From Diphasiastrum complanatum (lineage: Eukaryota > Streptophyta > Lycopodiopsida > Lycopodiales > Lycopodiaceae), in NCBI GenBank assembly GCA_029204225.1, contig CM055092.1, positions 99,399,460 to 99,463,459 on the forward strand: DNA of 64,000 bases, read 5' to 3'. Shown here one piece after another: positions 1-55,929 of the stretch (positions are counted from its first letter, which is position 1; each line of letters begins with the position of its first letter). The notes under the pieces were generated by a model, which was not told the origin of the DNA, ran no database searches, and saw nothing but the letters and a program-made list of their open reading frames with translations. Made by a program: the position numbers and the translations under genes.

Positions 1-702
1 TTTTTCTCGAGAATGAGAGTATCTGCCAATAGCAAGATTTCCGAATTCTTCTAATTGTATCGGAAGAAGAGTGCCATCAAATAATTCTTGTACTAATTTG
101 ACATCTTCCTCCGAATCGTTCCTTAATCTGATCTCTCGAAAGAATCGTGCTGAATGCTGTAAATAATTACACTTAGATATACAAATTTTGTACAAAAAAT
201 AAGGTCTTTGCTGCAAATGTGCCGAACTGTCGATAAGAATATGTACACAATAATTTATAAGCACGGGACCTTCGTTCAATCTTGCATGACTGTGTTTGAT
301 TTCTGCAAAAATATTCAGCAAAATTGCGCTCCCAGTCAATGTAGATCTCATATAGTTTCAGGGATACGCCATATTTATATTGATCAGCAAACCCGCATTG
401 TCCGATGCTGCTAGTGTCCGCACGCTCCGTTGGTTTGTACAGTTCGAATTGACAGTGTCGTCTCCAAAATTGTCGTGTTCGATCGTCGACCTCCAAAATT
501 GTAGTTCTTTGATTCGAATATATTCTAAAGCATACATACAGGTTGATCCTATATACAATTCGACTGACCCGAATGGACAGACTTTAAACTTGCCCTGTAG
601 GATTGCCCAGCATAAGCATCCTTTCTGCTCTATGTCTAACTGGTCCCATAACCAGAGAAATTCGTCCTTTTCCCACTCAATTTTCCAATCGTCGAAGGGC
701 AA
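1..702 (-). pseudogene. Extra coding region downstream of gypsy pol, distal part (runs off the left edge)
   Basis: One minus-strand frame stays open from about 702 to the window edge, broken only by a TGA near 358-360. The translation starts with an aromatic, acidic stretch (FDDWKIEWEKDEFLWLWDQL) and later contains FFREIRLRNDSEEDVKLVQE before leaving the window. I recognise no family and see no membrane segment or zinc motif. It lies downstream of the family-A integrase on the same strand, where Athila-type plant elements carry an extra (env-like) ORF. That position, not similarity, is the reason for the assignment. A minority view is a separate intron-bearing gene, since some breaks fall beside GT/AG dinucleotides. 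Confidence 0.4.
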
Positions 703-723
703 TGCCTACTGTGCCTGGTAGCA

Positions 724-1949
724 TCAAATAATCGACATGCCATTGCAATTCGATGTTAGGTGATGAGGCGTCCATTTCCAAAATTTCTTTGAAAAAACTT
801 TGAAACGTTCAGCACATACCTTCGACTGATTTCTTTTTGTGCGCTTTGCCTTTGGTGGTACTTCTGTCGTTTCATGCGAATGAAGTGTAATCGCGAAGTT
901 CTGATCATCGAGCTGCTGCTTGAAAGTTGTTACTTCTTTTTGCAGGTCTGATATTTGCACTAATGCCTGTGCATACTCCAAATGATCAGCAACTCCCGAA
1001 CAAGCTGTTACAGATTTAAGTTCGTTGACAGCTGTTCGATTGTGTCCCAGAGCCTTTGTATATTCGGTATGTGCATCTGGCCCGGTACAACCTCCGATTG
1101 CCGACAACTCCTTCAGCTCTGCTAACTCCTCTTCGAGTAGAGCTTTGTCGTCTTCGAGGGGTTGCAGAAAATCGATGCGAAAATTTTCGAGCATCTGATC
1201 TCGAAGTGTATTCAGCTTCATAGGATCAATTTGTGCAGTACCCGAAGTGCTGCATAGTGTAAGGCAGTTTCTGCCTTTATTTTCTTCAGGGCAGATTCTT
1301 GAAGTGATATCTGCAACTTTTCATTAGCAGATTTGACCTTCTCATGCTCCCATCTGCAAAGCATGAAAGAATCTCTGCACTTCTGCAAATTTGGCATCAA
1401 TCGCCTTGTTTGTCGCTTTCAAAGAATCATTTTCGTGGGTCAAATGGTTGAACTTGTCGACCCAATGATTGATTTCGCTCAAGCAACTTCGCGGTTGTCT
1501 GCTTCGAGCGTTTCGATTCGAGTCTTCGACTCGTCGATTTTCTCTTTCATCTCATCTGATGTTTTGAATAATTGCATCATTCCTCGTTGGATATTCATAT
1601 CATACCTTCGAACTTCTTGTATGATTTGTCTGGCCCCCTCAGAAAGATCACCCAACCCTTGATTCTGAAATGCATTAGGGTCTTCTTCTGATTTGGTGGT
1701 GTCTTCATCCGCAGCTTTACTTTTGTCCTGCCCCGGTTCTGTAATAATTTCGAGAGATGGTGGGCTCGGACTCTCCTGCGAATGAGCTTGTGCAGCACTG
1801 TCGTCCTGCATAGGCTCAGTTTGTGAAGCTTCATATCTTACTGGTTCTGAGCCAGTGCTAGGCTCCTTTTGAGTTGCTTCCTCTGTGATTTCCATGGCTG
1901 TTGCTGCAATACTTGGAGTAGCTGACTGCAGAAGGCTTGAGAAATCCAC
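724..1949 (-). pseudogene. Extra coding region, middle part: charged coiled-coil protein, frameshifted
   Basis: Open pieces at 1949-1479, 1400-1218 and 1221-724 follow one another on the minus strand in shifting frames. The first piece is low-complexity and acidic (many S, P, E, T), then becomes helical (DEMKEKIDESKTRIETLEAD). The following pieces are rich in L, E, K and A with heptad-like spacing (DDKALLEEELAELKELSAIG) and end in a basic patch (KAKRTKRNQSK). A coiled-coil structural protein is the safest description. No catalytic motif is visible. At least two frame breaks separate the pieces, so no continuous protein is made unless short introns are spliced out. It lies between the pol gene and the distal piece at 1-702. 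Confidence 0.4.
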
Positions 1950-2751
1950 CTTTGTTGTCGGAACCAGTCTGCCGACTAAGCTATTCTACTCGGCTTCCGT
2001 TAGAATTCCAAGATATTCACAGAGTCGAGAGATATGAGCTCCGACTACTGTGAATTTTTTGTGCTTGACCCACCTCAGAAAAGCTTTGAAGACAATCAGG
2101 CCGAAACAGACGGGATTTCCCTCAAGCGCATCCAGTAAGTAGCCAAAGTTCTGTACTGAAATAGTTGCATCAGCATCAGTGATGAACAGGACTTGATTGG
2201 CATACTTACAAAGCAGCTTCAGCTGAGTGTCCCTTCGTCATCGAGATTTTGTATCCCTTGCCTGGGGACATAGCAGTTTGCTAGGAAGTATTTTGTTTCC
2301 TCCACAGCATCCTTGGAAGTTGAATTACAGACTCCATCAGTCGGTAATCCCAAGGGCTGTAGAGAAAATTCTTTCATTGATCAAGCAGGCGGTGTTGCGC
2401 AGTTTGACCTTGAAATCAACATCAGTGACTTCGTGAATAGAATTCACGAATTCTTCACTGACGTTGGTTAGCACAATAGAGGGGTCCACCTTCATGTTAC
2501 CCAACCGGCAACGGTCCAACAAGGACTGAATCGACGCCAGCCGAATAGAGGCGCGAACCTTCCATGATATGGCGCTGCTTGAACTCGTATCCATATTTGT
2601 CGGATGGTTGTGTGCAAGAATCGCAATCGTAGAAGAGGAAAATGGATCGCAAGTAAGCACAAAGGAAAATTTGAAAGTGTAAGAGTAAAAAATTAGAAGG
2701 TAAGGGGTTTATGGTAACAAAGGATGGAAGAAGAGGATGGTGACGTGGCAT
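1950..2751 (-). pseudogene. Extra coding region, proximal part, unknown domain
   Basis: The frame at 2660-2337 (VDFKVKLRNTACLINERIFS) ends at a TGA. One base out of phase, the translation resumes with a plausible globular sequence (DAVEETKYFLANCYVPRQG, then FGLIVFKAFLRWVKHKKFTV near 2050-2120). It runs into the acidic piece at 1949. The mix of hydrophobic and charged segments looks like a folded domain that I do not recognise. With the two distal pieces it makes a coding stretch of at least 2.7 kb after integrase. One stop and one shift show that it is decayed, or that it is interrupted by an intron I cannot place. Confidence 0.35.
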
Positions 2752-2884
2752 AGTTGATTTGACAACTGTAAACCTATACTTAAGGCGGTATCTAACAAAA
2801 TCTTCATGACGGCGGTGAAAGTTAACATGATAAGTATCTTAAGACCGTTTGAATTTAAGAGAGTAATAAATGAGTAATTAAGTC

Positions 2885-2980
2885 GATAAGTAAATAAATA
2901 AATAAACAAATAAAAATAAATAAATAAATAAGTAATATAAATAAATAAATAAAAATAAAAAATAAATAAATATTAATAAA
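2885..2980. repeat. TAAA-type microsatellite
   Basis: An A/T-only stretch of imperfect TAAA/TAAAA units, interrupted by a few C and G bases, lies just past the 3' end of the gypsy pol frame. Confidence 0.8.
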
Positions 2981-3003
2981 TACGCAAATAAGACTCGAAT
3001 GAT

Positions 3004-3090
3004 GTTTGGATGATAGTATTCGAAGGATGTTCGGGTGGTATTCGAATGAATGATCGGATGATATTCGAATGAATGATCGGATGATATTCG
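3004..3090. repeat. Short tandem repeat around GAATGATCGGATGATATTC
   Basis: Two and a half imperfect copies of a roughly 26-bp unit with core ATTCGAATGAATGATCGG are followed by ATTCG and the pol stop region. The unit is rich in TTCGAA, like the rest of the family-A element, so it is probably part of that element. Confidence 0.6.
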
Positions 3091-5152
3091 TTAAATAAAA
3101 TATTTCTTGAGTCTGGAGCCGTTAATACGTGTAGGTAGGAGTTCTCCTTCGAGTGACTCAAGTTGTACCGAACCATTCTCGAATACTTCGATTACTTTGT
3201 ACGGTCCCAACCATTTCATATGAAGTTTTCCTGGAAACTTTTGGTGACGACTATCATAAACAAGGGCAAAGTCATTGGTCTTAAGATCGCAGATCTTAAG
3301 TGTAAAATCATATTTAATCTTTCGTTGCTCCTGAATTTTCTTTGTAAGTTCGAGTGAACGTGTTCGAGCTTCCGAAAGTTCTTCGATAATCAATAACCGT
3401 TCGTTGGTACAGTCTGCCTCTGTCCGTTCTGCTTGTATTCGGAAGGTAGGTATTTCAAATTCGATAGGCAGGATTGGATGCATTCCGTACGTAAGATAAT
3501 AAGGAGTCTGTTGAGTAGTGATCTTTTCAGTGTTTCTATATGCCCAGAGAACAGAGGGTAACTTTTGATCCCAGTCTGTAGCATGTGCAACAGAAATTTT
3601 ATTAAGGATCTTACATAATATGCCATTTGCTCTCTCTGTTAACCCATTAGCTTTCGGATTATAAGGTGTTGTCTTCCTATGTTTGATCTGGAAATAATTT
3701 GTCAGGTGTCGAATTGTTTCATTCAGAAAGTGTGTTCCTCGATCACTGACAAGTTCTAAAGGACAACCATATCGTGTAATAATAGATTTGAAAAGAAAAG
3801 CTGCGACAGTCTTCGAGTCGTTTCGTTTCGTTCCTTCAGCTTCCACATTCTTTGTCGCATAATCCTTTGCTACCAAGATATATCGACACTTGGTGTGTCG
3901 GGTTACTGGTTTGATTGGCCCGACAAAGTCGATCCCCCATTTTTCGAATGGTGCGAGCGGTAAAATTGGTGTCAATGGCCAATTCATTGCTTTTGTTGGT
4001 TTACCAGACCTTTGGCATGGATCACAAGATCGAATATAGATAGAGACATCTTTAAACATAGTAGGCCACCAATACTTGGCATTTAATATCTTTTTAACAG
4101 TGTTTTTGAGGGCAAAGTGACCTCCGGCATCTTCCGAATGTAAGTCTTGGATGACTTTTGAAATTTGTTCGGCTTCAAGACACCTTCTTAATTGATTATC
4201 AGCACCAAGTTTATACAGGATATTATTGATAATTGTATATGGTGCAACTTTGTATTGAAACACTGTTTTCTTCTCCAAGTCATATCCATCAGGATATATC
4301 TGATCTTTGAGATAATCAATAATATCAGAATAAAAAGAATTCGATGAAGATAACTCGAACAAATTTTCATCTGGGAAATCGTCATTCAATGGGTTTTCAA
4401 TTTTTCCAGTGCTTATTCGTGAAAGGTAATCCGCATTGGTATGGTATTTCCCTTGGCGAAGTTCAACTGTATAAGTGAATTCTTGTAATAACAGAACCCA
4501 GCGAGCTATTTGTCCTGATAAATCTGGTTTGTTTACTAGATATTTCAGAGCATAGTGATCCACATGGAAAATAAAAGCATACCCCAGCAAATAATGCCGA
4601 AATTTCTTGACTGTAAATATCATTCCAAGTGCTTCTCGTTCTGTCGCCGAATAATTCTTCTCCGAAGAACTGAGTTGTCGACTAGCATAATATATTGGAT
4701 ATTCTTTCTTCCGTTCGTCCTTCTGGCTTAGACATACACCAATAGCGAATGCTGACACATCCACATAACAATGAAATATAATTGACCAATTAGGTGGTCT
4801 TAAGATCGGTGCATTGATCAGTTTCTGTTTGAGATTTTCGAAAGCTTTTTGGTGTTCTTCTGTCCAAAGATACACCACTTCTTTCTTTAATAATTGAGTA
4901 AGTGCTGCAGATATTGAGGCATGATTCTGGATAAACCTTCGATAATAACCGACATGTCCCAAAAAGGCTCCAAGTTCGCGAAGATTTGTTGGTATAAGCA
5001 AATTCCGTATTACTTCGACTTTATCTTTGTCGACCTCGATCCCTCGATTGGATATTCTGTGTCCTAGAAGAATGCCTTCTCTCATTCCGAAGAAACATTT
5101 TTCGGGATGGAGTGACAGACAAGTGTCTCGACACTTGTGTAAGGTTAGCTTC
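3091..5152 (-). pseudogene. Ty3/gypsy pol C-terminal half: RT end, RNase H, integrase (family A)
   Basis: The frame is open from the LTR junction at 5152 to the stop at 3091 (about 687 codons). It begins in the RT thumb (SLHPEKCFFGMREG), then has RNase H with its acidic residues in YVDVSAFAIG, TEREALGM and HVDHYALKYL. Integrase follows: an HHCC zinc finger (HSEDAGGHF to CDPCQ) and a DDE core with D in WGIDFVG, D in LVSDRGTHF and E in GLTERANG. No chromodomain is seen. These enzymes degrade the RNA template and insert the cDNA. The frame lacks gag, protease and the RT palm, which lie in the arms to the right. The open frame continues upstream into antisense LTR, so its first ~45 codons are not pol. 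Coding integrity suggests a young copy. Confidence 0.9.
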
Positions 5153-6371
5153 TGTGAAGATGTGTATTTATTAAACAACGAATATACATCCGAATGAAGC
5201 AATATATATTCACATAAGAAGACAAGAGCTGGATACATATATAATGAAGGGACCTGCCTATATTTTTCGCGACATACTAAATATCGCATATAAAGGACAA
5301 GTCCTCAGCAATGAAGCGACATCTACAACAACCCTTAAATAAAGACACTTACATGAAACGACTCGATTCGAATCGACAATTCTAACTATAGTAATCTAAA
5401 CTCAGGGTTAGATACATCTTTGCGGTATAATCTACATATGTGTCAGATATATATTGGTTAACCTTATTCAGTAAAGTGACACGCCTCTAATTTATAAAGA
5501 CGTGATTGTTCGCTCTGAAGATGATAAAGAGAAGACACGATTCAGTCTTACTCACCAGGAGATATAGTTTATGTATTCGCTGAGAGATAAAAGTTTATGT
5601 ACTTGTGAGAGATCTTCTGAAGTACTCTAACAATCTTTCTTATATAAATCTATCTCTGGTCAGACAGTTGCATAAGTACATTACAGTCTATGTTGTGTAT
5701 CCGTAAAAGTGTTCTAACGAACTGTCTTAAAACTAACTTATTCGTTCATTCGAATATTTGTTTGACACTCGAATACTTGTTCGATACCCGAATAACGTTT
5801 ATCATCAGAAGTCTATCTCAGTCATCGATAGAAAAGTATGTATACAACTGAATTGATAGTCCCTGTCTGAAGAATTGAGATAAGATATCTGTATTCTGAA
5901 TATCTCCGAACATATGTTTCTAACATATTCGAAGATTATACAAGAGATTTAACTCTGAGGAGAACACTAGTTGTTGAGGACTACTGTTTAACTTTTGTTA
6001 ATCCAAGAATAAGATTAACTTATGATCACTGATGAACGAATACATCGAAATCAATCCGAATTCTTGCCGACACCTTAATCAGATAGAGTGGAGTACATTC
6101 GTACTACTCTGATAACAATTCTCCTGTAGAACGCCAATTCTTCGATTCGAAAGAGAAGACTGATATTCCGATTTTAAATATTCATTTATCCATTAAGTAA
6201 TCCAGGTTACTTAACCCAAATGTCTGTTTGACAACCAGACTAATTCTCCGTTTTATATCATACGAATAAGTCAGAACAATATCAACATTATACCATAAAG
6301 AAGCTATCCTCTTGGCGATTCGACATTAAATACTACAAAACTATACCAAATACAATTGGTTTTCCACGACA
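5153..6371 (+). mobile_element. LTR of gypsy family A, arm 1
   Basis: It starts at TGTGAAGATG, a terminus confirmed because the same sequence ends the opposite arm at 14762 before the flanks diverge. The 3' end is placed at ACGACA, 16 bp before the primer site, and is less certain because no second LTR in the same orientation is available. At about 1.2 kb it is a long LTR rich in TTCGAA. The five bases before it are GCTTC, which belong to the RT gene of the adjoining minus-strand element. Confidence 0.75.
5641..5648 (+). promoter_or_regulatory. Candidate LTR TATA box, arm 1
   Basis: TATATAAA lies about 490 bp into the LTR, a plausible position for the U3/R promoter. Transcription from it would enter the palindrome. 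Confidence 0.45.
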
Positions 6372-6387
6372 TAAAAAAACCAAATTT

Positions 6388-6405
6388 TGGCGCCGTTGCC
6401 GGGAT
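6388..6405 (+). other. Primer-binding site, tRNA-Asp type, arm 1
   Basis: TGGCGCCGTTGCCGGGAT is the sequence known from Athila-type plant gypsy elements as complementary to the 3' end of tRNA-Asp. It would prime minus-strand DNA synthesis. Compared with arm 2 it has lost one G from the G-run. Confidence 0.8.
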
Positions 6406-6462
6406 AGCCAAAAACAAACATGTTGATATAAAACTGACAAAATCATCGTCATTAATAAGTAT

Positions 6463-9400
6463 ATGTCAGACAGAGCTTCCCGACTCGAAAGATATCGAAA
6501 GATTCGAGAAGATTTTTTCAGAAATTTATCTGGAAGTTCTGATAGAGCTGAAACTTATTCGGATTTGTTAAAACCAGTTGCCAAACTAAAACCGAATATG
6601 GAAGGCCCTGCACCCCGACTTTCTTCAATTTCGAAGATCAGATACGATTATTTCAAAGGAACAACCTCAGATGATGCGGACAATTATGTTTCGCAGTTCG
6701 AATCAATTGCGAACGCGAATAATGAAGGTTCGGAGGCGGACAAACTGAGGATTTTTCCTGGTCTTCTCAGAAAACAAGCACGCATATGGTACAGCCAAGT
6801 CGAACCAGGACGAGTGGCTACCTGGTTGCTGCTGAAAGATGCGTTTCTACACCAATTTAGAGAAATTGGTTATTCATCCAGAGTACTCGGCAGACTCAAC
6901 AACATAGAGAAGAAGAGTCGAGAATCTCTGAGAAGGTATACTTGTAAGGTCAAGAATCTTATTGGAAAACTAACTGGAGTATACCCCGTTGCGATGCAGA
7001 TTGAATGGTTTCTGTCAGGTTTACCACCGAGTATAAATCGATACTGCAGACAAGGTGATACGACTACCTTAGCAGCAGTCATTGCAAGTGCTGAAAACTA
7101 TGAGACTTCTAAGCTTGCTCAGAAGAGAAAATCAACTAGACGAAGTCGAAAGTCTAAGCATGTTTCCAGTGGCAGTGAAGAGGATTCGAAGTCTGAATCC
7201 AGTTCCAGTTCCTCCAGTTCAGAATCCGAATTACACGACTCATCCGACTCTGAGACTGATGAGAGAGAACGAAGTAGTAAACGAAAACCCAAACGAAAGG
7301 ACGATAAAAATTCGGAGATGAAGCCAACAACATCAAAGGTCGAAAAGATTTGGAGGAGAGATCTTGCAGATATTAACAAAAGATTCAACGATCTAAAAGT
7401 TCAGATTTCAGAGGTTGCTGACAAGAGACCGAAATCATCTTCTTCCAATTCAGGACTATGGTGTACGAGGTGCGGTGCATCAGGACATTCGAAGGAAGAT
7501 TGCAGAACAGTGAATATATCTTACGTTGAAGATCCAACACATGAGGTGCTGTTTATTTTTCAGAATAATGATACAACAACAAATTTTGTTCAAGGCACGA
7601 CTACACCGTTCCAGCAATCCAAACCCAAATTCGGACCGAAAAGATATAATCCACCCGAATTTGTAACATCAACAACAAAGACTTCGAATTTTCCAAGACC
7701 AATTTCGGGCAATTGTTACAATTGTGGAGAACCAGGACATTTTTCACCAGACTGTCCGCAACCACGGAAGCCAATTGGGTATGTACCTCTCTGTTCGAAT
7801 TGTAAAGAACCAGGCCACAAATATCCTGATTGTCCCCAACCACAGAGGCCAAGACCTAAATACCAGTATGTAGCGACACCTGCTGCAATGGTAGACTCGA
7901 AAGGAAAAGTTTCGGCAGATGCGGTTATACAAAAAATTGACCTTGTGGAAAACCAATCAACGAGGACAACTGACCAATCTTGGCCAAGTGATATGGAAAC
8001 AATATTCAAAGTAAATACGAGGAGTTCTTCGAAAGATGACTCGAAAACCAACTCGAAAGGTTCCTCGAAGAAACGCAGAAAATCATCTAAGAAGAAGGGA
8101 ACGAATAAATCCCTAACAAAAGAAGATATTAAAGATGATCCCGACTATGATCGAAATGCTAAAAATTTGTTTTCAAAAGATATATCTATAGAAGCGAAAG
8201 AAATAATTGAAGAAGAACTACAAAGAGCAGCTACAGAAAGGAAAGTCAAATTCGAAGACGGGAACGAATCAATTCATAAAACCAAACTGTCGGAAGCCAT
8301 GATTGACAAGCCGATATCGAAGACGAAAGATTATGATATCGTAACTGATATTGGTTTTCTTCGTCCAAATATCACATTCGAACAATTGTTGGCAGACAAT
8401 ACTTACTATCGCAGGCAGTTAAAAGGACTTTCTACTCCAAAGAAGAAGAAAAGAAATCCCTTGCCAGAATTAGGAGTATTATCTATTGATTTGGGAGATC
8501 TTGGCGCACCGGAAATCGACATTACTATTAAGGGATGCTTAATCGAACATGTGCCGATTGATTCAGGTTCCAGCGTCAATATTATTATTGAAGAAACTGC
8601 TCACGCTCTGGGTTTGACAGATATTCGACCAACCAACCGAAATATCAAGTTGGCAGACTCAACACGACGAAAGCCTGTCGGAGAGCTGGAGAATGTTACT
8701 GTGTATATACAAGCCAAGCCTTTTACCATGAATTTTATTGTTATCAAACCAATGGGTTTGCCTTCTTACTCTGTGCTAATCGGAAGGCCGTGGCTGTATC
8801 AGTCAAATGCTAGTGTTCATTGGAAGTCTAGGGAATTAAGATTTCAAACTGGCGAGACCAATAATCGTGGAAAACCAGCAGAGGAGATCATTACCTGGAA
8901 TAAAGATAGATACGAAGGCGAAACTCCTATGACCGACACTAGCTATACTTCGGAAAATTCTTCTTATGCACTAAATATCTTCTCTAATGTTTCAGATGTC
9001 GAAGTTAAATTTTTCGAATGCTATGAGAATGATAACAAATCAGATAATGCAGAAGAATTCATCGATGTTTGCAACACAGAACTAGATGAACTAGTTATTA
9101 TTGAAGACGAATCAACAGATTCGTACGAATCGGACGACTCGGACGAATCAGACGAAGAAATTGAAAATAAGAATCAGTCTGTCGACACGAACATATCTAT
9201 GGAGACAGCAATGCGCGAAATTCATGGATATTCAAAGTCTAGTATGACAGAAGGTATGATTTTACCTGATTCAACAGAGCAAATTGAACTTGCACCGGGC
9301 AGATGTGTCCATGTTGCAAAGTCCTTGGGAGAAACTGAGTTATCTAAATACACTGAATTGCTTAAAGAGTATCAGGACGTCTTTGCATGGTCGCTTGATG

Positions 9401-9999
9401 ACTTAAAAGGAATTCCTGCCGAATATGGTGAACATCGAATTGATGTAAAGGAGAACGCTATTCCTGTTCGTCAGAGACAGTATCGACTTAATCCAAAGTA
9501 CTCTTTAATGGTAAAAGACGAACTCAACAAATATCTAAAAGCAGGAATTATTTATCATGTCTTAAGTAGCGAATGGGTGTCACCTATTGTGGTAGTACCA
9601 AAGAAGAAAACTGGCAAGATTCGTATATGCCAGGACTTTCGAAAGCTCAATGCAGCTACACAGAAAGATCATCATCCGTTACCATTCACTGATTCTATTC
9701 TGGATCAGGTAGCTGGACAAGAACGATATAGTTTCTGTGATGGTTTTTCAGGCTATAATCAAGTTAGAATGCGGAAGGAGGATAAAGCGAAAACCACATT
9801 CACCACCGATTGGGGCACTTATGCCTACAATAGAATGCCCTTTGGTCTCTGTAATGCGCCGGCGACTTTTCAACGAATTATGATGCTGATTTTTGCCGCG
9901 TTTTTACGATTTTTTCTCGAAATATTTATTGACGACTTCTGTGTATATAGCGATAGCAAATCTCATATCCAGAAACTGAAGCTGTCGTGGAAAAACTGA
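6463..9999 (+). CDS. gag-protease-RT polyprotein of family A, truncated (arm 1)
   Basis: This is an open frame of 1178 codons. Residues 1-230 are a gag capsid-type region (YVSQFESIANANNEGSEADK, IWYSQVEPGRVATWLLLKD). A Ser/Glu-rich linker follows, then three CCHC zinc knuckles (CTRCGASGHSKEDC, CYNCGEPGHFSPDC, CSNCKEPGHKYPDC). Protease is marked by PIDSGSSVNI at about residue 705. RT starts near residue 1000 (ICQDFRKLNAAT, FCDGFSGYNQVRM, MPFGLCNAPATFQ) and reaches the catalytic box as FIDDFCVYS. The frame then stops in the spacer, so the RT thumb, RNase H and integrase are missing. The ATG at 6463 directly follows the primer site and leader. An internal acidic stretch (YESDDSDESDEE) separates protease and RT. 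It is intact as a frame but defective as an element. Confidence 0.9.
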   Translation: MSDRASRLERYRKIREDFFRNLSGSSDRAETYSDLLKPVAKLKPNMEGPAPRLSSISKIRYDYFKGTTSDDADNYVSQFESIANANNEGSEADKLRIFPGLLRKQARIWYSQVEPGRVATWLLLKDAFLHQFREIGYSSRVLGRLNNIEKKSRESLRRYTCKVKNLIGKLTGVYPVAMQIEWFLSGLPPSINRYCRQGDTTTLAAVIASAENYETSKLAQKRKSTRRSRKSKHVSSGSEEDSKSESSSSSSSSESELHDSSDSETDERERSSKRKPKRKDDKNSEMKPTTSKVEKIWRRDLADINKRFNDLKVQISEVADKRPKSSSSNSGLWCTRCGASGHSKEDCRTVNISYVEDPTHEVLFIFQNNDTTTNFVQGTTTPFQQSKPKFGPKRYNPPEFVTSTTKTSNFPRPISGNCYNCGEPGHFSPDCPQPRKPIGYVPLCSNCKEPGHKYPDCPQPQRPRPKYQYVATPAAMVDSKGKVSADAVIQKIDLVENQSTRTTDQSWPSDMETIFKVNTRSSSKDDSKTNSKGSSKKRRKSSKKKGTNKSLTKEDIKDDPDYDRNAKNLFSKDISIEAKEIIEEELQRAATERKVKFEDGNESIHKTKLSEAMIDKPISKTKDYDIVTDIGFLRPNITFEQLLADNTYYRRQLKGLSTPKKKKRNPLPELGVLSIDLGDLGAPEIDITIKGCLIEHVPIDSGSSVNIIIEETAHALGLTDIRPTNRNIKLADSTRRKPVGELENVTVYIQAKPFTMNFIVIKPMGLPSYSVLIGRPWLYQSNASVHWKSRELRFQTGETNNRGKPAEEIITWNKDRYEGETPMTDTSYTSENSSYALNIFSNVSDVEVKFFECYENDNKSDNAEEFIDVCNTELDELVIIEDESTDSYESDDSDESDEEIENKNQSVDTNISMETAMREIHGYSKSSMTEGMILPDSTEQIELAPGRCVHVAKSLGETELSKYTELLKEYQDVFAWSLDDLKGIPAEYGEHRIDVKENAIPVRQRQYRLNPKYSLMVKDELNKYLKAGIIYHVLSSEWVSPIVVVPKKKTGKIRICQDFRKLNAATQKDHHPLPFTDSILDQVAGQERYSFCDGFSGYNQVRMRKEDKAKTTFTTDWGTYAYNRMPFGLCNAPATFQRIMMLIFAAFLRFFLEIFIDDFCVYSDSKSHIQKLKLSWKN

Positions 10000-10003
10000 A
10001 GCT
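9911..10003. other. Spacer of the inverted repeat
   Basis: The first two thirds continue the RT gene of arm 1, including FIDDFCVYS. Arm 2 has lost this section. The end holds two imperfect copies of AAACTGAAGCT, each followed by a TCGT. The second copy abuts the start of arm 2. RT coding in the spacer breaks off exactly at GAAGCT, the same bases with which the minus-strand pol resumes at the LTR junction near 5147-5152. Confidence 0.85.
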
Positions 10004-13000
10004 ATCGTAAAAATGCGGCAAAAATCAGCATCATAATTCGTTGAAAAGTCGCCGGCGCATTACAGAGACCAAAGGGCATTCTATTGTAGGCATAAGTGCC
10101 CCAATCGGTGGTGAATGTAATTTTCGCTTTATCCTCCTTCCGCATTCTAACTTGATTATAGCCTGAAAAACCATCACAGAAACTATATCGTTCTTGTCCA
10201 GCTACCTGATCCAGAATAGAATCAGTGAATGGTAACGGATGATGATCTTTCTGTGTAGCTGCATTGAGCTTTCGAAAGTCCTGGCATATACGAATCTTGC
10301 CAGTCTTCTTCTTTGGTACTACCACAATAGGTGACACCCATTCACTACTTAAGACAGGATAAATAATTCCTGCTTTTAGATATTTGTTGAGTTCGTCTTT
10401 TACCATTAAAGAGTACTTTGGATTAAGTCGATACTGTCTCTGACGAACAGGAATAGCGTTCTCCTTTACATCAATTCGATGTTCACCATATTCGGCAGGA
10501 ATTCCTTTTAAGTCATCAAGCGACCATGCAAAGACGTCCTGATACTCTTTAAGCAATTCAGTTTATTTAGATAACTCAATTTCTCCCAAGGACTTTGCAA
10601 CATGGACACATCTGCCCGGTGCAAGTTCAATTTGCTCTGTTGAATCAGGTAAAATCATACCTTCTGTCATACTAGACTTTGAATATCCATGAATTTCGTG
10701 CATTGCTGTCTCCATAGATATGTTCGTGTCGACAGACTGATTCTTATTTTCAATTTCTTCGTCTGATTCGTCCGAGTCGTCCGATTCGTACGAATCTGTT
10801 GATTCGTCTTCAATAATAACTAGTTCATCTAGTTCTGTGTTGCAAACATCGATGAATTCTTCTGCATTATCTGATTCGTTATCATTCTCATAGCATTCGA
10901 AAAATTTAACTTCGACATCTGAAACATTAGAGAAGATATTTAGTGCATAAGAAGAATTTTCCGAAGTATAGCTAGTGTCGGTCATAGGAGTTTCGCCTTC
11001 GTATCTATCTTTATTCCAGGTAATGATCTCCTCTGCTGGTTTTCCACGATTATTGGTCTCGCCAGTTTGAAATCTTAATTCCCTAGACTTCCAATGAACA
11101 CTAGCATTTGACTGATACAGCCACGGCCTTCCGATTAGCACAGAGTAAGAAGGCAAACCCATTGGTTTGATAACAATAAAATTCATGGTAAAAGTCTTGG
11201 CTTGTATATACACAGTAACATTCTCCAGCTCTCCGACAGGCTTTCGTCGTGTTGAGTCTGCCAACTTGATATTTCGGTTGGTTGGTCGAATATCTGTCAA
11301 ACCCAGAGCGTGAGCAGTTTCTTCAGTAATAATATTGACGCTCGAACCTGAATCAATCGGCACATGTTCGATTAAGCATCCCTCAATAGTAATGTCGATT
11401 TTCGGTGCGCCAAGATCTCCCAAATCAATAGATAATACTCCTAATTCTGGCATGGGATTTCTTTCCTTCTTCTTTGGAGGAGAAAGTCCTTTAAACTGCC
11501 TGCGATAGTAAGTATTGTCTGCCAACAATTGTTCGAATGTGATATTTGGACGAAGAGAACCAATATCAGTTATGATATCGTAATCTTTCGTCTTCGATAT
11601 CGGCTTGTCAATCATGGCTTCCGACAGTTTGGTTTTATGAATTGATTCGTTCCCGTCTTCGAATGTGACTTTCCTTTCTGTAGCTGCTCTTTGTAGTTCT
11701 TCTTCAATTATTTCTTTCGCTTCTGCAGATATATCTTTTGAAAACAAATTTTTAGCATTTCGATCATAGTCGGGATCATCTTTAATATCTTCTTTTGTTA
11801 GGGATTTATTCGTTCCCTTCTTCTTAGATGGTTTTCTGCGTTTCTTCGAGGAACCTTTCGAGTTGGTTTTCGAGTCATATTTCGAAGAACTCCTCGTATT
11901 TACTTTGAATATTGTTTCCATATCACTTGGCCAAGATTGGTCAGTTGTCCTCGTTGATTGGTTTTCCACAAGATCAATTTTTTGTATAACCGCATCTGCC
12001 GAAACTTTTCCTTTCGAGTCTACCATTGCAGCAGGTGTCGCTACATACTGGTATTTAGGTCTTGGCCTCTGTGGTTGGGGACAATCAGGATATTTGTGGC
12101 CTGGTTCTTTACAATTCGAACAGAGAGGTACATACCCAATTGGCTTCCGTGGTTGCGGACAGTCTGGTGAAAAATGTCCTGGTTCTCCACAATTGTAACA
12201 ATTGCCCGAAACTGGTCTTGGAAAATTCGAAGTCTTTGTTGTTGATGTTACAAATTCGGGTGGATTATATCTTTTCGGTCCGAATTTGGGTTTGGATTGC
12301 TGGAACGGTGTAGTCGTGCCTTGAACAAAATTTGTTGTTGTATCATTATTCTGAAAAATAAACAGCACCTCCTGTGTTGGATCTTCAACGTAAGATATAT
12401 TCACTGTTCTGCAATCTTCCTTCGAATGTCCTGATGCACCGCACCTCGTACACCATAGTCCTGAATTGGAAGAAGATGATTTCGGTCTCTTGTCAGCAAC
12501 CTCTGAAATCTGAACTTTTAGATCGTAGAATCTTTTGTTAATATCTGCAAGATCTCTCCTCCAAATCTTTTCGACCTTTGATGTTGTTGGCTTCATCTCC
12601 GAATTTTTATCGTCCTTTCGTTTGGGTTTTCGTTTACTACTTCGTTCTCTCTCATCAGTCTCAGAGTCGGATGAGTCGTGTAATTCGGATTCTGAACTGG
12701 AGGAACTGGAACTGGATTCAGACTTCGAATCCTCTTCACTGCCACTGGAAACATGCTTAGACTTTCGACTTCGTCTAGTTGATTTTCTCTTCTGAGTAAG
12801 CTTAGAAGTCTCATAGTTTTCAGCACTTGCAATGACTGCTGCTAAGGTAGTCGTATCACCTTGTCTGCAGTATCGATTTATACTCGGTGGTAAACCTGAC
12901 AGAAACCATTCAATCTGCATCGCAACGGGGTATACTCCAGTTAGTTTTCCAATAAGATTCTTGACCTTACAAGTATACCTTCTCAGAGATTCTCGACTCT

Positions 13001-13451
13001 TCTTCTCTATGTTGTTGAGTCTGCCGAGTACTCTGGATGAATAACCAATTTCTCTGAATTGGTGTAGAAACGCATCTTTCAGCAGCAACCAGGTAGCCAC
13101 TCGTCCTGGTTCGACTTGGCTGTACCATATGCGTGCTTGTTTTCTGAGAAGACCAGGAAAAATCCTCAGTTTGTCCGCCTCCGAACCTTCATTATTCGCG
13201 TTCGCAATTGATTCGAACTGCGAAACATAATTGTCCGCATCATCTGAGGTTGTTCCTTTGAAATAATCGTATCTGATCTTCGAAATTGAAGAAAGTCGGG
13301 GTGCAGGGCCTTCCATATTCGGTTTTAGTTTGGCAACTGGTTTTAACAAATCCGAATAAGTTTCAGCTCTATCAGAACTTCCAGATAAATTTCTGAAAAA
13401 ATCTTCTCGAATCTTTCGATATCTTTCGAGTCGGGAAGCTCTGTCTGACAT
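10004..13451 (-). pseudogene. gag-protease-RT polyprotein of family A, truncated and stopped (arm 2)
   Basis: This near-identical copy of the arm-1 polyprotein starts at 13451 with the same MSDRASRLERYRKIRE. All three zinc knuckles and the DSG protease motif are present. A tyrosine codon (TAC in arm 1) is TAA here, near 10563, splitting the frame into 962 and 184 codons. RT ends after the MPFGLCNAPATFQ box, before the catalytic FIDD box, so this copy could not make active RT even without the stop. Nearly all visible differences from arm 1 change the amino acid (for example THEVL to TQEVL, RPISG to RPVSG). That suggests drift without selection since the arms formed. Confidence 0.9.
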
Positions 13452-13509
13452 ATACTTATTAATGACGATGATTTTGTCAGTTTTATATCAACATGTTTGT
13501 TTTTGGCTA

Positions 13510-13527
13510 TCCCCGGCAATGGCGCCA
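13510..13527 (-). other. Primer-binding site, tRNA-Asp type, arm 2
   Basis: On the minus strand this reads TGGCGCCATTGCCGGGGA. It keeps the four-G run that arm 1 has lost but carries a G-to-A change in the middle. Each arm has therefore damaged its primer site differently. Confidence 0.8.
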
Positions 13528-13543
13528 AAATTTGGTTTTTTTA

Positions 13544-14762
13544 TGTCGTGGAAAACCAATTGTATTTGGTATAGTTTTGTAGTATTTAATGTCGAATCGC
13601 CAAGAGGATAGCTTCTTTATGGTATAATGTTGATATTGTTCTGACTTATTCGTATGATATAAAACGGAGAATTAGTCTGGTTGTCAAATAGACATTTGGG
13701 TTAAGTAACCTGGATTACTTAATGGATAAATGAATATTTAAAATCGGAATATCAGTCTTCTCTTTCGAATCGAAGAATTGGCGTTCTACAGGAGAATTGT
13801 TATCAGAGTAGTACGAATGTACTCCACTCTATCTGATTAAGGTGTCGGCAAGAATTCGGATTGATTTCGATGTATTCGTTCATCAGTGATCATAAGTTAA
13901 TCTTATTCTTGGATTAACAAAAGTTAAACAGTAGTCCTCAACAACTAGTGTTCTCCTCAGAGTTAAATCTCTTGTATAATCTTCGAATATGTTAGAAACA
14001 TATGTTCGGAGATATTCAGAATACAGATATCTTATCTCAATTCTTCAGACAGGGACTATCAATTCAGTTGTATACATACTTTTCTATCGATGACTGAGAT
14101 AGACTTCTGATGATAAACGTTATTCGGGTATCGAACAAGTATTCGAGTGTCAAACAAATATTCGAATGAACGAATAAGTTAGTTTTAAGACAGTTCGTTA
14201 GAACACTTTTACGGATACACAACATAGACTGTAATGTACTTATGCAACTGTCTGACCAGAGTTAGATTTATATAAGAAAGATTGTTAGAGTACTTCAGAA
14301 GATCTCTCACAAGTACATAAACTTTTATCTCTCAGCGAATACATAAACTATATCTCCTGGTGAGTAAGACTGAATCGTGTCTTCTCTTTATCATCTTCAG
14401 AGCGAACAATCACGTCTTTATAAATTAGAGGCGTGTCACTTTACTGAATAAGGTTAACCAATATATATCTGACACGTATGTAGATTATACCGCAAAGATG
14501 TATCTAACCCTGAGTTTAGATTACTATAGTTAGAATTGTCGATTCGAATCGAGTCGTTTCATGTAAGTGTCTTTATTTAAGGGTTGTTGTAGATGTCGCT
14601 TCATTGCTGAGGACTTGTCCTTTATATGTGATATTTAGTATGTCGCGAAAAATATAGGCAGGTCCCTTCATTATATATATATCCAGCTCTTGTCTTCTTA
14701 TGTGAATATATATTGCTTCATTCGGATGTATATTCGTTGTTTAATAAATACACATCTTCACA
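13544..14762 (-). mobile_element. LTR of gypsy family A, arm 2
   Basis: This is the mirror copy of the arm-1 LTR, ending on the plus strand with CTTCACA at 14762. The next five bases are CTAGC. If this LTR is the true outer end of the element, CTAGC should recur beside a 3' LTR to the left of the window. Differences from arm 1 are scattered single bases. Confidence 0.75.
14267..14274 (-). promoter_or_regulatory. Candidate LTR TATA box, arm 2
   Basis: TATATAAA on the minus strand, the counterpart of the arm-1 box. It also directs transcription toward the palindrome centre. Confidence 0.45.
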
Positions 14763-15600
14763 CTAGCTGAACTTGGTAGACTCGCATATCTACTTTAAGT
14801 CTATATTAGATCTTTCTATTATCACTGCTCATTATGTAGATGAGTTTTATTACTCAATAACAATTTGAACTCAATGAAGGATCTGAAATGCATGTTAGCA
14901 CTGGAGTACATTTTTTGAATCTGGCCTAGTAGACTGATTTCCATCAGTCAACAAAAAGCCAGCCCATCAGCCAACATTCTACACAGATGTAGATTGGATA
15001 GAAAGTATTGACACTAGAATATCAACTTCTGGATTTATGTTCAATCAAGGTCCAATCTCATGTAACAGCTAGACCTCAGTAACATTATCCTCCACCGAGT
15101 CAGATTTTATAGCTTGCACACATGCTACCAAGGAGGCGATTTGACTAAAGAACCATCCTGTAGATACCAATTTTATTCAGTCACATCTGACATTTATCTA
15201 CTATGACAACCAAATCACAAGGATAATTTCTTTGGTTTACTATAGGACATAGTTTATGGCAGCAGATTACTTTGCCATGGATTACCAACTCAGACTTAAC
15301 AATTTATTAAATCTGAAGATAAAAAATTTTCAAGATCCACATCAAGGGGGAGAGTTGGAATTCTATCCTCAAGCCCAATTCCATTAGGTAATGAACATCC
15401 TGAACAACTTGTTTATACATATTCTTGAAAAACTACAAAAATAGAGGGGGCATGATTTTTACTTGAAGATAAAAAAAATTCGGTATCAAATTTTTTCGAC
15501 CCAAGACTATTTTTCACCCAATGTCATTCTTGTCAAAGAGAGATTTTTCAACCCTGGGTTGGGTTGAATCAGTTCTAATTTTTTTGACCCTAGATCAAGT
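14763..15600 (+). pseudogene. Copia remnant: RNase H end, polypurine tract, start of 3' LTR
   Basis: Around 14980-15110 the translation reads YTDVDWIESIDTRISTSGF followed by TLSSTESDFIACTHATKEAI, the copia RNase H pattern (ADW..DDRKSTSG, LSSTEAEY). Stops interrupt it, including one in place of the Trp after the SSTE block. A later piece resembles the C-terminal DN.. segment. The purine run AAGGGGGAGAG at 15345-15354 is the polypurine tract. TTGGAATTC right after it would begin the 3' LTR. The first 150 bp after the gypsy arm show no clear homology. From 15360 to 15600 I see only LTR-like, T-rich DNA without a gene. Confidence 0.65.
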
Positions 15601-15610
15601 CTAATTTTTT

Positions 15611-16618
15611 CGAGAGCCGTCGAACCTATTCGGTACATATCGGTTCTAATTTTTCTGACCCTGAAAAACTACGAGCCTTTGTATATTTTCTGACCCTTTA
15701 TATATTTTTGACCCTTTGTATAAATCAGACCCTTTATAATATTCCGACCCTTTGTACTGTCAACTCGAAAATCCGACCCACGTCGTGACGTTGATAGTCC
15801 GCCTACTTCTATACATAACTCTTTGGCAAAAAAAACAGCTCTCTATTGTAGGACAAATATAGTTAATCAAGTAGATTAATGGTAGCTTTTAATGTACTGA
15901 TCATCTAACTTCCAATCATCAAGAAAGATCTACTGGAGTCGGCTCTTTGATCAGGTTATTATCTTGTAGGCGTTCTGTTGTAATTAGTCAGGTTAAGTTT
16001 TTTAATCAATTAGTTAGCCATCAACGAACTCACCTAAAGACTGATTAGCACCCACTGATTTGCACTAGATTCAAGCTCTTGTACTAAGTGTCGATTATTA
16101 TCAGAGTGCATTTTTTGTGTCTACACTACTATTTTTTTCTATTGCGTATTGTAGTTATTTGATCCATATTGAACTTGCTCATAGTTGGTAACTGATGCAC
16201 TTCGGATCCACGCACCACCTACTCAACTTCCGCTGCTCACCACTTCCATTGCTCCACTTCCACTGCTCACCACCATTTCCACTAATTTTTGACTGGTAGT
16301 ATCAGATAATCTGTCTAGATATCGACTAATCCGATACCAGTCACTCATCTCTGAATCCACTAAAATCCAACATTGTCAAGTAGAGATTTGGTGTGTGGCA
16401 TGACCCTATGTATTGGCATGAGATCATTTGCATCATGCTTGCTGAACTGGTGGAGCAGGCTGCCATAACTTGCATAATCAGCTGCCATTCACAAAGGTAT
16501 CAAACTGTTTTCCATCCAAGTGCTCAAGAATCACTGCTCCATAGTTCAAAATTTCCTTCACTCTATACGGGCCTTCATCGGTAAACTTCAATTTCCTTAC
16601 GACGGGCTTTCTCTACTG
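15611..16618 (-). mobile_element. 3' end of gypsy family B, copy 1 (non-coding)
   Basis: The first 590 bp match 50345-50935 closely. The shared part opens with repeated T-run plus GACCC units (TTTTTGACCCTTTGTATA type). Copy 1 alone continues from about 16200 to 16618, where copy 2 has a deletion. No coding frame of its own is visible. It lies 3' of the integrase on the minus strand, so it probably contains the 3' untranslated region and LTR. Confidence 0.55.
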
Positions 16619-17888
16619 CTAACACTTAACTGCCATCAATCTTGTTTCACACAATTTGTGCAACGCTTCATGACATAACTGCAAAGACTTATCATCATTT
16701 AGCTGCTTTGTCGATGCTATACGTAGAGATGGTATTAAAAATTCAATCGGCATGACAACATTTTGACCATAGACTAGTTGAAATGGTGTTTGATTTGTAC
16801 TACTTTTGTAAGCGGTTCTGAATGCCCATAATGTTGCATGCAGTTTATGTTCCCAATCAAATCGACTCGCTTCAACTGTTTTTATCATAATAGTGTAGAG
16901 AATCTTATTGGAAGATTCAGCTTGGCCATTCCCTCTAGGATAATAAGGAGTACTAAATCTATGTATAACAAAAAAATCTTCCAGTAAACACTTTATCGTT
17001 TGATTAGAAAAGTGTGTACCCCGGTCACTGACAATCTCGATAGGACATCCAAATCTAATAATAATATTTTTGTAGAGAAACTTGGCCATAGATTTCGCAT
17101 TAGCAACTTTGACAGCTTTGGCTTCAACCCACTTGGTCATATTATCAGTTGCTACGATAATATATCAGGCCTGAGATCCTCGCGTGGCAGGATGAATAGG
17201 ACCAATATAATTCAGTCTCCATTTTTCAAATGGTGCTTGCGATAAAACCAGATGTAAAGGTTCATAGTTCTGTCTAGTAGGCCATCGTGCTCGCTGGCAA
17301 ACATCACATGTCTGAATATAATTTTTTGTGTCTTTATAAAGCGTAAGCCACCAACAACCTGATTGCAAAATTTTGCGGACAATAATATCTATAGAGAAGT
17401 GTCCTTTGCCCATGCCATCATTTGAAAACGTGATTAAATCTAATATTTCATGCGATAAAACACATCTACGTAGAATATTGTCTGATCCATGACAATACAA
17501 TTTTTCAGCAATCAATTGATAAGGTTCAGCCTTATGAATCAATTGCATCTTTTGTACTTTTGTCAAAGAGTCATTCGGTTGTCCTAGCATCAAGTACTCA
17601 ACAATATTCGCGCGTGTGATAAGGGCTCGTTTAACAGTCTTCCAATCTGTGTGCTCAGTTTCATCTTGATTATAGTACCAATCTTGTGCTGCGCCTGTTA
17701 AGGCCATAGAAAAAAAGCTTAAGTTTATCTTGGAAAAAAACTTCACCATAGACTTCACAAGATTCAGAATAGATCTGAAGAAATCTAACTAGATCTATTA
17801 ATCCATTATATTTGGGTAGATCCAAACAGTGTGCTCTTCTAATAATGATTGGATTGACTTCTCGAGGAGCACCTCTAGGGGCAGCCAT
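16619..17888 (-). pseudogene. Gypsy family B copy 1: gag start fused to integrase by internal deletion
   Basis: Reading from 17888, MAAPRGAPREVNPIIIRRAH starts gag (LPKYNGLIDLVRFLQIYSES). A stop-bearing stretch and the gag piece AAQDWYYNQDETEHTDWKTV follow. Near 17600 the sequence jumps straight to pre-integrase (EYLMLGQPNDSL), omitting the protease, RT and RNase H. Integrase has the zinc finger (HFSIDI.. to CDVCQRARW), then a break near 17165 (TATATCAGG gives a stop), then DRGTHFSNQTIKC and NGQAESSNK with the D and E of the catalytic triad. Copy 2 still holds about 1.8 kb of the sequence missing here, which fixes the deletion point. Non-functional. Confidence 0.85.
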
Positions 17889-18451
17889 CTTTATAGATTA
17901 AATCAAGCAGACAATGAGGTTGGATCTAGATTTTCAATCAAAACTGTCTCGGATTAGATCTACTAGATCTCTTCGACTTGACATGAATTAGATTCCTATA
18001 TCGTGAATTCTCAAAAATAAAAAAATTCTTAGAATCAAAATTAGACTGTATCAGATTTGACTCGAAATTTGACAAGGACTTGATCTGGAAAATCAAAACC
18101 TAAAAATAGAACTAACGAAGGTCCCCTAGGGGAGGATTCACTCAATGAAGTTTCAATAGTGCTATTTTTGAAAAAAACTCTTTAATTAGATTTTTCTGAC
18201 AAATTCTATCGAAATAACCTTTGCCGCACTCTCAGACTCAGAATCTGAGACAAGATAAAGCTAGGGTAGAACTGGTGAAGGTTTCGGACACACAAAAGCA
18301 CAATTTTTGTAGTTTGACGAGGGTAAAAATAAAGATTTTCTATTATTTGAATAGGATGAATATTCGCCAAACTCAAAAACAGTAAATTATTTTAAATGGA
18401 ATAATATGAAAACTCGGCGAAGGTTCTGGCAAAGAATCAAGAGTAATACAC
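17889..18451 (-). mobile_element. Leader/5' region of gypsy family B copy 1
   Basis: This non-coding stretch upstream of the family-B gag matches 53651-54215 of copy 2 nearly base for base, including the GAAGGT and CTCGGCGAAGGTTCTGGCAA boxes. I find no clean primer site. Copy 1 lacks the following ~575 bp found in copy 2 (54216-54792). Confidence 0.6.
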
Positions 18452-19092
18452 ACGCAGGGTGCCAAATTCCTCTCACTTATTAACTAGAGTTAGAGTTGCC
18501 TTGGGATCCACAAACGCTCCAACAGAGTTAGGGTCCAATCAAAAGAGAGATATTCATCAATTTGGCCCAATCAAGTTTGAGGGCTCATATGTCACTCAAC
18601 CAATAGGATTCAGAGGAGGAAAAGAAGGTTTCCAATTATATTTCACTCCCTTTCATGTTAGATCACTACATTAGGAAAAATATGGCTCAAAATGGGCCCT
18701 TCAAAAAATTTCACTTTAGAGAGAGGTCATGTACAGACATAATACGAATCGGTAACTTTTGGTCGTCGTTTTCTGAGTTTTTAGCCTTGCTTGATGTTTA
18801 ACTAGTATGGTTAACTTCAAACATTAGCTAGTTAAGCATGAGATATAATAACCTCTCTGTATGCTCGTTTCAAAATTCGAGGCTAGAGCTTTAAGACTGT
18901 AAATCTTGGTGTACTCATTGCAAAAACTGAAGTGGGAGTAGCAGCACTTTTGAAATCTTTGTATGCTTATAGTGAAATATGAGGCGGGATGATTTTTCAG
19001 CGCAACATAGACATTACAAAAGTAAGGTATGCTAGATCTATTTAATTTGACTTATTATAGTTTGAAGTATTTATGGATCGTAGCTTGCAACA

Positions 19093-19565
19093 ATGGCAAT
19101 GTTCCATTTGCATGTTGCACTTCCTATGGAATACACTCCAATTATTAAGAAAAATTCGAAAGCTGTTGAGAATGTTGTTGAAATAGTTAGAGAATTGAGA
19201 ATGAATAATCATAAGAATATAGATTTGTGGGTGGATGGATCAATTTATTTAAATGATCCAGGTACGAATTTGTGTCCAAATTTTAAGTCCGTAACTCATC
19301 TTCTCATATTTGTATGTGAAGAAAATAACGGATTACTTGGATATTGTCAAAGGTAGCATGATATTGAAATGCATAGCATATCTTGTCTTAATAAGCAATT
19401 ACAGTTTGCTAATCAACAATTGCAACGTGGAAATCAACAATTGTTTCATTGTGTGCAATACACTAGTGCTGAAAATAATGCACTCAAGCATGCTATGTCA
19501 GAGTTGAATGCTACAATCACTACTCTTCGAGGATCAAACCAAAAAATGTTAGAATCCATGGAGTA
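19093..19565 (+). pseudogene. Unknown repeated gene C, first exon, copy 1 (stopped)
   Basis: The start MAMFHLHVALPMEYTPIIKK is followed by a basic segment and then a Gln/Asn/Leu-rich helical segment (CLNKQLQFANQQLQRGNQQL). A TAG at about 19354 replaces the TTG of copy 2, but the frame reopens and runs to the same stop at 19565. No signal peptide or catalytic motif is visible. The second half looks like a coiled coil. I do not recognise the family. The intact homologue is at 55421-55894. Confidence 0.5.
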
Positions 19566-19599
19566 GTTGAGATCTGATAGTTTAAAATCTGTTTGTTGA

Positions 19600-20375: not shown

Positions 20376-20525
20376 ATGTGTCCTAATTCAACTTTCTACT
20401 TTCTCTCACTTTCTAAAAGTGGTAATTTCACATGTACTTTGGCTAAAAATAACTTCATAAAATTTATCTCTAAGTATAAAATGCATATTGGCCTAAATTG
20501 CCAACTAATCAACATAGACCAAAAT

Positions 20526-22130: not shown

Positions 22131-22390
22131 TGTTAGAAATCAATGATAAACTTCATTGTTACTGTTTACGATCATATTAATATTGACAGTTGTGACCAGC
22201 TGTCAATAGTCGTAGGCTAGTCTAGCAGTCTACTCGTAGGTTTTCTCTCTCTATCAGGGTTTAGGATTTATTTGTACATTTTACATTCTGTATGTGGTAG
22301 TGTGATAGAGTGACAGTGCGTGTTCTTCTTCCGCCTTCTTTTGGTGATTGCTTATGGTGAATGCTTGATGTTGCATATCTAATTCTTGAG
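22121..22390 (+). mobile_element. Polypurine tract and 3' LTR start of the copia relic
   Basis: TGAGGGAGAG (22121-22130) is followed at once by TGTTAGAAAT, the usual copia LTR opening. The LTR is replaced after about 260 bp by a different copia relic on the other strand. Confidence 0.65.
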
Positions 22391-55894: not shown

Positions 55895-55929
55895 TTGCGA
55901 TCTGATAGTTTAAAATCTGTTTGTTGATA

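What the first reader, a model, noticed from the sequence alone, without database searches (positions are those of the whole stretch)
5153..14762. 9.6-kb near-perfect palindrome made of two facing half-retrotransposons
Two 4.76-kb arms (LTR to mid-RT) face each other across 93 bp with about 99% identity and only one net base difference in length. Both LTR TATA boxes fire inward, so each LTR could transcribe one complete arm and then its complement, giving a hairpin RNA of several kilobases. Long inverted duplications of transposons (the maize Muk locus is the known case) can silence their whole family through small RNAs. This locus has the layout for that role against family A; the silencing itself is inference.
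Basis: partly seen in the sequence, partly recalled or inferred. Interest (0 to 1): 0.88.

Follow-up and report, generated by a model that had tools for sequence, protein, structure and literature searches.

The report
Palindromic self-inserted LTR retrotransposon
A mobile element appears to have inserted its own end into its own middle and been copied backwards, leaving a 9.6-kb mirror-image locus that could make long hairpin RNA, though no expression or silencing could be tested.

Summary
The palindrome is real. Arms 5153-9910 and 10004-14762 differ by 39 substitutions and one 1-bp indel over 4758 bp (99.2% identical), around a 93-bp spacer. It is not two free-standing half-elements. The left flank (3091-5152, minus strand) holds the other half of the same kind of pol: the end of RT, then RNase H and integrase. 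Matched piecewise to Ty3 RT, the arm's RT stops and the flank's RT starts at the same place, within one residue. The left arm's LTR begins at TG, joined to GAAGC of pol. The same arm ends, 4.8 kb away, at that same GAAGC(T). This is the geometry of an LTR end attacking its own cDNA (autointegration), followed by a fold-back copy of the 5' half. Coding differences between arms look neutral (25 nonsynonymous, 8 synonymous, pN/pS 0.87), but they are clustered. A nested second copy followed by deletion is the main rival. The RNA-hairpin layout holds: TATA-like boxes at 5641 and 14274 face inward. Silencing is untested. The own-genome, protein and literature searches did not complete, so novelty rests on recall.

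The parts
3091..5152 (-). C-terminal half of pol (end of RT, RNase H, integrase), open reading frame; read outward from the palindrome's left edge
   Evidence: Pfam RT_RNaseH_2, RT_RNaseH, Integrase_H2C2, rve
173..2708 (-). stretch after pol with several interrupted reading frames; the element's 3' LTR is not in the window
   Evidence: ORFs; 3 pieces tested, no Pfam family above its cut-off; no match to the LTR in 1-5152 at E up to 0.1
5148..5152 (-). GAAGC: first five bases of the pol flank, joined to the LTR terminus; candidate 5-bp target-site duplication
5153..6385 (+). left LTR, begins TGTGAAG; inner edge approximate (before the primer-binding-site-like stretch)
5641..5648 (+). TATA-like box TATATAAA of left LTR, pointing inward
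   Evidence: motif only
6388..6409 (+). primer-binding-site-like stretch TGGCGCCGTTGCCGGG... (type recalled, not tested)
6427..9983 (+). left arm gag, zinc knuckle and N-terminal part of RT, open throughout (protease not reported by Pfam on this arm, weak on the right arm)
9911..9983 (+). 73 nt of RT present only in the left arm (loop); ends CTGAAGCT, the same site to which the LTR is joined at 5152/5153
9973..10012 (+). two adjacent 20-bp units, 17 of 20 identical, across the centre junction; the only such place among 9570 positions of the palindrome apart from its 1-bp shift
10004..14762 (-). right arm: LTR, gag, weak protease, RT part; reading frame interrupted by one in-frame stop (frames 10563-13487 and 10002-10562)
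13530..14762 (-). right LTR (outer edge set by the alignment, inner edge approximate)
14267..14274 (-). TATA-like box of right LTR, pointing inward
   Evidence: motif only
14763..14767 (.). CTAGC: five bases outside the right LTR, predicted to recur outside the unseen 3' LTR
   Evidence: prediction
14980..15216 (+). flank: decayed Copia-type RNase H stretch with in-frame stops, not pol of this family; 14763-14979 not identified
   Evidence: tblastn with the window's own Copia RNase H against 838 bases: 30 of 83 residues identical, E 1e-8 for that tiny search

Best explanation
This is one Ty3-type LTR retrotransposon (minus strand; its 3' end lies beyond the window start) that rearranged itself before or during integration. 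Step 1: the 5' LTR end of its linear cDNA attacked the element's own RT gene at GAAGC (one-ended autointegration), so the LTR became joined to the 3' half of pol and the other side of the cut left an open end ...CTGAAGC(T). Step 2: that open 3' end folded back on its own strand 73 nt upstream and was copied to the LTR terminus, making the second arm, which therefore also ends at the LTR terminus. Step 3: the molecule, now with LTR ends on both outer sides, integrated next to or into an old Copia-type remnant (CTAGC flank). A 20-bp duplication at the centre came with or after the joining. Once integrated, either LTR could transcribe one arm and then its complement and give a stem of about 4.2 kb (TATA-like box to spacer). 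Shown: the arms, the LTR ends, the shared site, the split RT, and near-neutral coding differences. Inferred: integrase chemistry, fold-back order, integration step, RNA hairpin.
For: Both arms stop matching at TG; the two bases just outside differ. The left flank starts GAAGCTAACC and the left arm ends CTGAAGCT: 6 shared bases, 7 if the next A (also the first base of the right arm) is counted. Searched apart, the arm's last whole codon (9979-9981) extrapolates to residue 231 of Ty3 RT (4ol8), and the flank's first whole codon (5149-5151) to residue 232. So the two pieces split one RT at the point of insertion. If the arm's inner end were unrelated to the insertion site, ending within about 2 nt of it has a chance of order 5 in 5000 (my arithmetic). 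pN/pS between arms is 0.87, 25 of 33 coding changes nonsynonymous against 25.8 expected if neutral; the chance of 25 or more is 0.00008 at omega 0.2, 0.004 at 0.3 and 0.11 at 0.5. The pol half in the flank is open over its whole length, so it is not visibly older than the arms (weak test).
Against: The shared site is 6-7 bases, not exactly the 5 expected for this group (5 is recalled). Differences between arms are clustered (most in any window of 300, 550, 1000 bp: 11, 15, 18 of 39; p 0.002, 0.001, 0.011, window sizes chosen by me; the longest difference-free stretch, 573 bp, is not unusual, p 0.25), and the LTRs have 5 where 10.1 are expected (p 0.04). Uniform decay from identical arms would not predict this; two parental copies or later conversion could. 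Outside the LTRs, 8 of the next 12 flank bases match in register (0 of the nearest 2, 10 of 20, 17 of 40); random 12-mers of the window do so with frequency 0.004 (length chosen after looking). This may be chance or target preference, but it leaves room for a homology-guided joint. The 3' LTR and its flank are outside the window, so the target duplication of the whole insertion is unseen. Step 2 needs the LTR's 5' strand to stay unligated during copying. No second example or family copy could be examined.
Confidence: 0.55

Rival explanations
1. Two insertions and a deletion: a full second copy of the same family inserted in inverse orientation into pol of the first at GAAGC, and later its 3' half, its 3' LTR and 73 bp of the host copy were deleted, perhaps by trimming of a large loop between the two inverted arms.
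For: Nested insertions are common in repeat-rich plant genomes (recalled). Explains the LTR terminus and site duplication on the left and the clustered differences between arms. A loop trimmed back to the stem would end near the insertion site on its own.
Against: Unless loop trimming is invoked, the arm's end at the insertion site is a coincidence of order 1 in 1000 (my arithmetic). Two copies from active parents should show fewer nonsynonymous differences, though decay after insertion can mask this.
Confidence: 0.28
2. Two sister cDNAs from one particle: one autointegrated at GAAGC, and its open end was joined by end joining to a second cDNA cut near the same site. Same result as the best explanation without fold-back copying.
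For: Gives the same joints; the duplicated 20-bp unit at the centre fits error-prone joining; small real differences between sister templates would explain the clustered mismatches.
Against: Needs a second break within 73 bp of the first; near-neutral pN/pS gives no sign of two selected parents.
Confidence: 0.1
3. Assembly or read artefact (fold-back read of a single strand).
For: Perfect inverted repeats are a known artefact of long reads (recalled); no reads were available here.
Against: Arms carry 39 substitutions, 27 transitions to 12 transversions, and one single-base indel. Both arms stop at the LTR terminus; the two bases next to it differ and only 17 of 40 flank bases match; the left joint fits a target-site duplication. 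A fold-back read would mirror the flank too.
Confidence: 0.05

Closest known systems
Retroviral and Ty1 autointegration products, including cloned retroviral circles with an inverted segment (recalled, nothing read)
   Same: LTR terminus joined to an internal site of the same element with a short duplication and inversion of one segment
   Different: Known ones are mostly extrachromosomal circles (recalled); this is an assembled genomic locus with a second, mirror-image copy of the 5' half
maize Mu killer (Muk), inverted duplication of a MuDR element that silences the family through hairpin RNA (recalled, nothing read; one search failed)
   Same: long inverted duplication of part of a transposon, transcription through both arms possible
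   Different: an LTR retrotransposon with a promoter-like LTR on each arm; no RNA or silencing evidence here
complex LTR retrotransposon insertions by template switching in Triticeae (Sabot and Schulman 2007, recalled; searches failed)
   Same: rearranged LTR element insertions explained by events during the replication cycle (recalled)
   Different: could not be compared in detail
Ty3-type elements of the Athila/Tat kind with a reading frame after pol (recalled)
   Same: order gag, RT, RNase H, integrase, then a further frame-bearing stretch
   Different: family not identified; no relative could be searched

Membership tests
Ty3/gypsy LTR retrotransposon | gag, zinc knuckle, protease, RT, then RNase H and integrase in that order | tested here: met
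   order seen across the arms and the left flank; Ty3 RT/RNase H 4ol8 and Ty3 Gag-Pol 7q5b are the best solved relatives; protease weak (right arm only, below Pfam cut-off)
Ty3/gypsy LTR retrotransposon | two LTRs in direct orientation with target-site duplication | not testable with these tools
   the 3' LTR lies outside the window; no LTR match in 1-5152; own-genome search did not complete
Autointegration product | LTR terminus joined precisely to an internal site of the element | tested here: met
   that flank and arm are the same family rests on the continuous RT, since no full copy could be compared
Autointegration product | short stagger duplication of the internal site on both broken ends | tested here: inconclusive
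   GAAGC on both ends, but shared stretch is 6-7 bases
Autointegration product | both broken parts come from one molecule | tested here: inconclusive
   same split point of RT and near-neutral differences fit; mismatch cluster does not
Muk-like silencing hairpin locus | long inverted duplication of transposon sequence | tested here: met
Muk-like silencing hairpin locus | transcription through both arms, small RNAs, silencing of family members in trans | not testable with these tools
   no RNA data; only TATA-like motifs
Fold-back read artefact | arms identical and mirrored through the flanks | tested here: not met
   39 substitutions; flanks match at 0 of 2, 8 of 12 and 17 of 40 bases outside the LTRs

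The most novel reading that the evidence does not exclude
Autointegration, usually seen as a dead end for the element, here produced a heritable, promoter-driven hairpin locus of its own family: a retrotransposon that generates its own silencing trigger by failing to integrate properly. If general, host genomes would gain Muk-like loci directly from the elements' own integrase.
Probability: 0.12. Interest if true: 0.85.

Novelty: new variant of a known kind. Interest (0 to 1): 0.5.

Why it matters
Autointegration is known mainly from extrachromosomal DNA (recalled). A genomic copy that keeps both joints at base resolution lets the order of events be tested, and it gives a simple route by which a retrotransposon can create a natural hairpin locus against itself. 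How silencing of a new element family starts is a long-standing question, and such loci are candidates that can be found by sequence alone: an LTR terminus joined to an internal site that is also the arm's inner end.

Tried and rejected
Palindromic molecule with two 5' LTR ends inserted as a unit into an older copy: rejected, since the five bases outside the right LTR are CTAGC, not GCTTC, and the right flank is not pol. Reverse-transcription template switching alone: it does not explain an LTR terminus joined to an internal site shared with the arm's inner end. Filler DNA at the centre: first read as untemplated filler, then seen to be an imperfect 20-bp tandem duplication (17 of 20). Another copy of the family in the window: none close. 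Age of the flank half from open reading frames: it is open, but the power is weak. Relatives in viral contigs: none for one 448-aa piece of the left arm and one 18-base pattern (the tool says records of the window's own genome may be left out). Rfam: nothing at gathering scores. The bacterial-type promoter scan is not relevant to this kind of DNA.

Not answered: the genome search on the own assembly, same request each time; the paper search; paper reading. Hence no paper was seen in any form, no relative was compared, and nothing is claimed about what is or is not in print.
Full report
OBSERVATION. The finding's structure is in the sequence as described. The exact arms are 5153-9910 and 10004-14762, 39 substitutions and one 1-bp indel over 4758 bp, with a 93-bp centre. 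Both arms end at the LTR terminus TGTGAAG. Just outside, the two nearest bases differ; 8 of 12, 10 of 20 and 17 of 40 bases match in register. The 8 of 12 is more than random 12-mers of the window give (frequency 0.004; length chosen after looking), and I have no firm explanation for it.

WHAT THE FINDING MISSED. The minus-strand frame at 3091-5152 is the second half of a Ty3-type pol: end of RT, RNase H, integrase. The left-arm frame (6427-9983) is gag, zinc knuckle and the first part of RT; Pfam names the protease only weakly, on the right arm. Searched separately against solved structures, the left arm's RT piece matches Ty3 RT (4ol8) residues 45-225 with its residues 14-201; its last whole codon, residue 207, extrapolates to 231. 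The flank piece matches 235-475 with its residues 4-245; its first whole codon extrapolates to 232. Allowing for the shared codon and one residue of slack in unaligned ends, the two pieces are one RT split at one place. The DNA agrees: the flank begins GAAGCTAACC and the left arm ends CTGAAGCT. So the LTR was joined at the very site where the arm itself stops. That flank and arm are one family is inferred from this continuity; no full copy could be compared.

CENTRE. Of the 93 bp, 73 (9911-9983) continue the left arm's RT. The other 20 (9984-10003) are explained by two adjacent 20-bp units, 9973-9992 and 9993-10012, 17 of 20 identical; among 9570 positions of the palindrome no other place shows this apart from its 1-bp shift. 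Setting the duplication aside, the left arm's end meets the right arm's first bases directly, with one ambiguous A.

AGE AND NATURE OF DIFFERENCES. 27 transitions, 12 transversions. In coding sequence 25 nonsynonymous and 8 synonymous, pN/pS 0.87, with 25.8 nonsynonymous expected if neutral. For comparison, 25 or more nonsynonymous changes would have probability 0.00008 at omega 0.2, 0.004 at 0.3 and 0.11 at 0.5. So differences between two long-selected parents are unlikely to dominate, but a mixture is possible. AT-for-GC differences are balanced, 17 in each arm. Against a single birth event: differences cluster (11, 15 and 18 of 39 within 300, 550 and 1000 bp; p 0.002, 0.001, 0.011 in 3000 placements, window sizes chosen by me) and are few in the LTR (5 against 10.1; p 0.04); the longest difference-free stretch, 573 bp, is not unusual (p 0.25). 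Gene conversion between arms or two source templates could cause the clustering.

MECHANISM. Most likely a one-ended autointegration of the 5' LTR into the element's own pol, then a fold-back copy of the 5' half ending by run-off at the LTR terminus, then integration in older repeat DNA. The right flank holds a decayed Copia-type RNase H at 14980-15216 (tblastn with the window's own Copia RNase H, 30 of 83 residues identical, E 1e-8 against 838 bases); 14763-14979 is not identified. This order of events explains with few assumptions why both arms end at the LTR terminus, why one arm ends at its own insertion site, and why the loop is made of the arm's own end. The nested-insertion-plus-deletion rival needs the deletion to stop at the insertion site by chance, or a loop-trimming process. 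The decisive datum, the 3' LTR and its flank, is outside the window, and the own-genome search did not complete.

FUNCTION. Each LTR has TATATAAA facing inward (5641, 14274; five other TATA-like matches in each), so an RNA with a stem of about 4.2 kb is possible. Whether it is made, and whether it silences the family, is unknown. One search shows no close second copy in the window: an LTR relative at 66-77% near 27.4-28.2 kb, and for the flank's pol two Ty3-type relatives at 39% (about 16.5-17.6 and 50.9-51.9 kb). Nothing in the sequence separates a working silencing locus from inert debris.

NOVELTY. Autointegration and hairpin silencing loci are each known (recalled). The combination at one genomic locus may be uncommon, but no paper could be searched or read, so I claim only a new variant of a known kind. 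The host is taken to be a plant from the element types and primer-site-like sequence (recalled); it was not identified.

Noticed in passing
27407-28195 (-): Diverged relative (66-77%) of this family's LTR, continuing past the LTR end; no relative of the arm's protein found elsewhere in the window at E 1e-3.
   Followed up: partly
15608-22955 and 50342-63871: Collinear blocks 93-95% identical in direct orientation (15608/50342, 16978/50935, 17614/53376, 18447/54796, 22392/63307), probably two copies of a second Ty3-type family with insertions or deletions between blocks.
   Followed up: no
46072-47118: Tandem array, 58-bp unit, about 83% alike, inside a stretch (44-48 kb) with strong GC skew -0.41 and several other tandem arrays.
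   Followed up: no
58006-58599: Tandem repeats of a motif like ATCTCGACCGGATC within an open frame; similar ATCTCAACC units also at 44.6-45.5 kb.
   Followed up: no
8188-8719 / 11195-11726: Cluster of arm differences (15 of 39), unexplained.
   Followed up: partly
5141-5152 and 14763-14774: 8 of 12 bases just outside the two LTR ends match in register although the nearest 2 differ; unexplained.
   Followed up: partly
173-2708 (-): Frames after pol are interrupted several times although pol beside them is open; the post-pol region may have been broken before this insertion.
   Followed up: no
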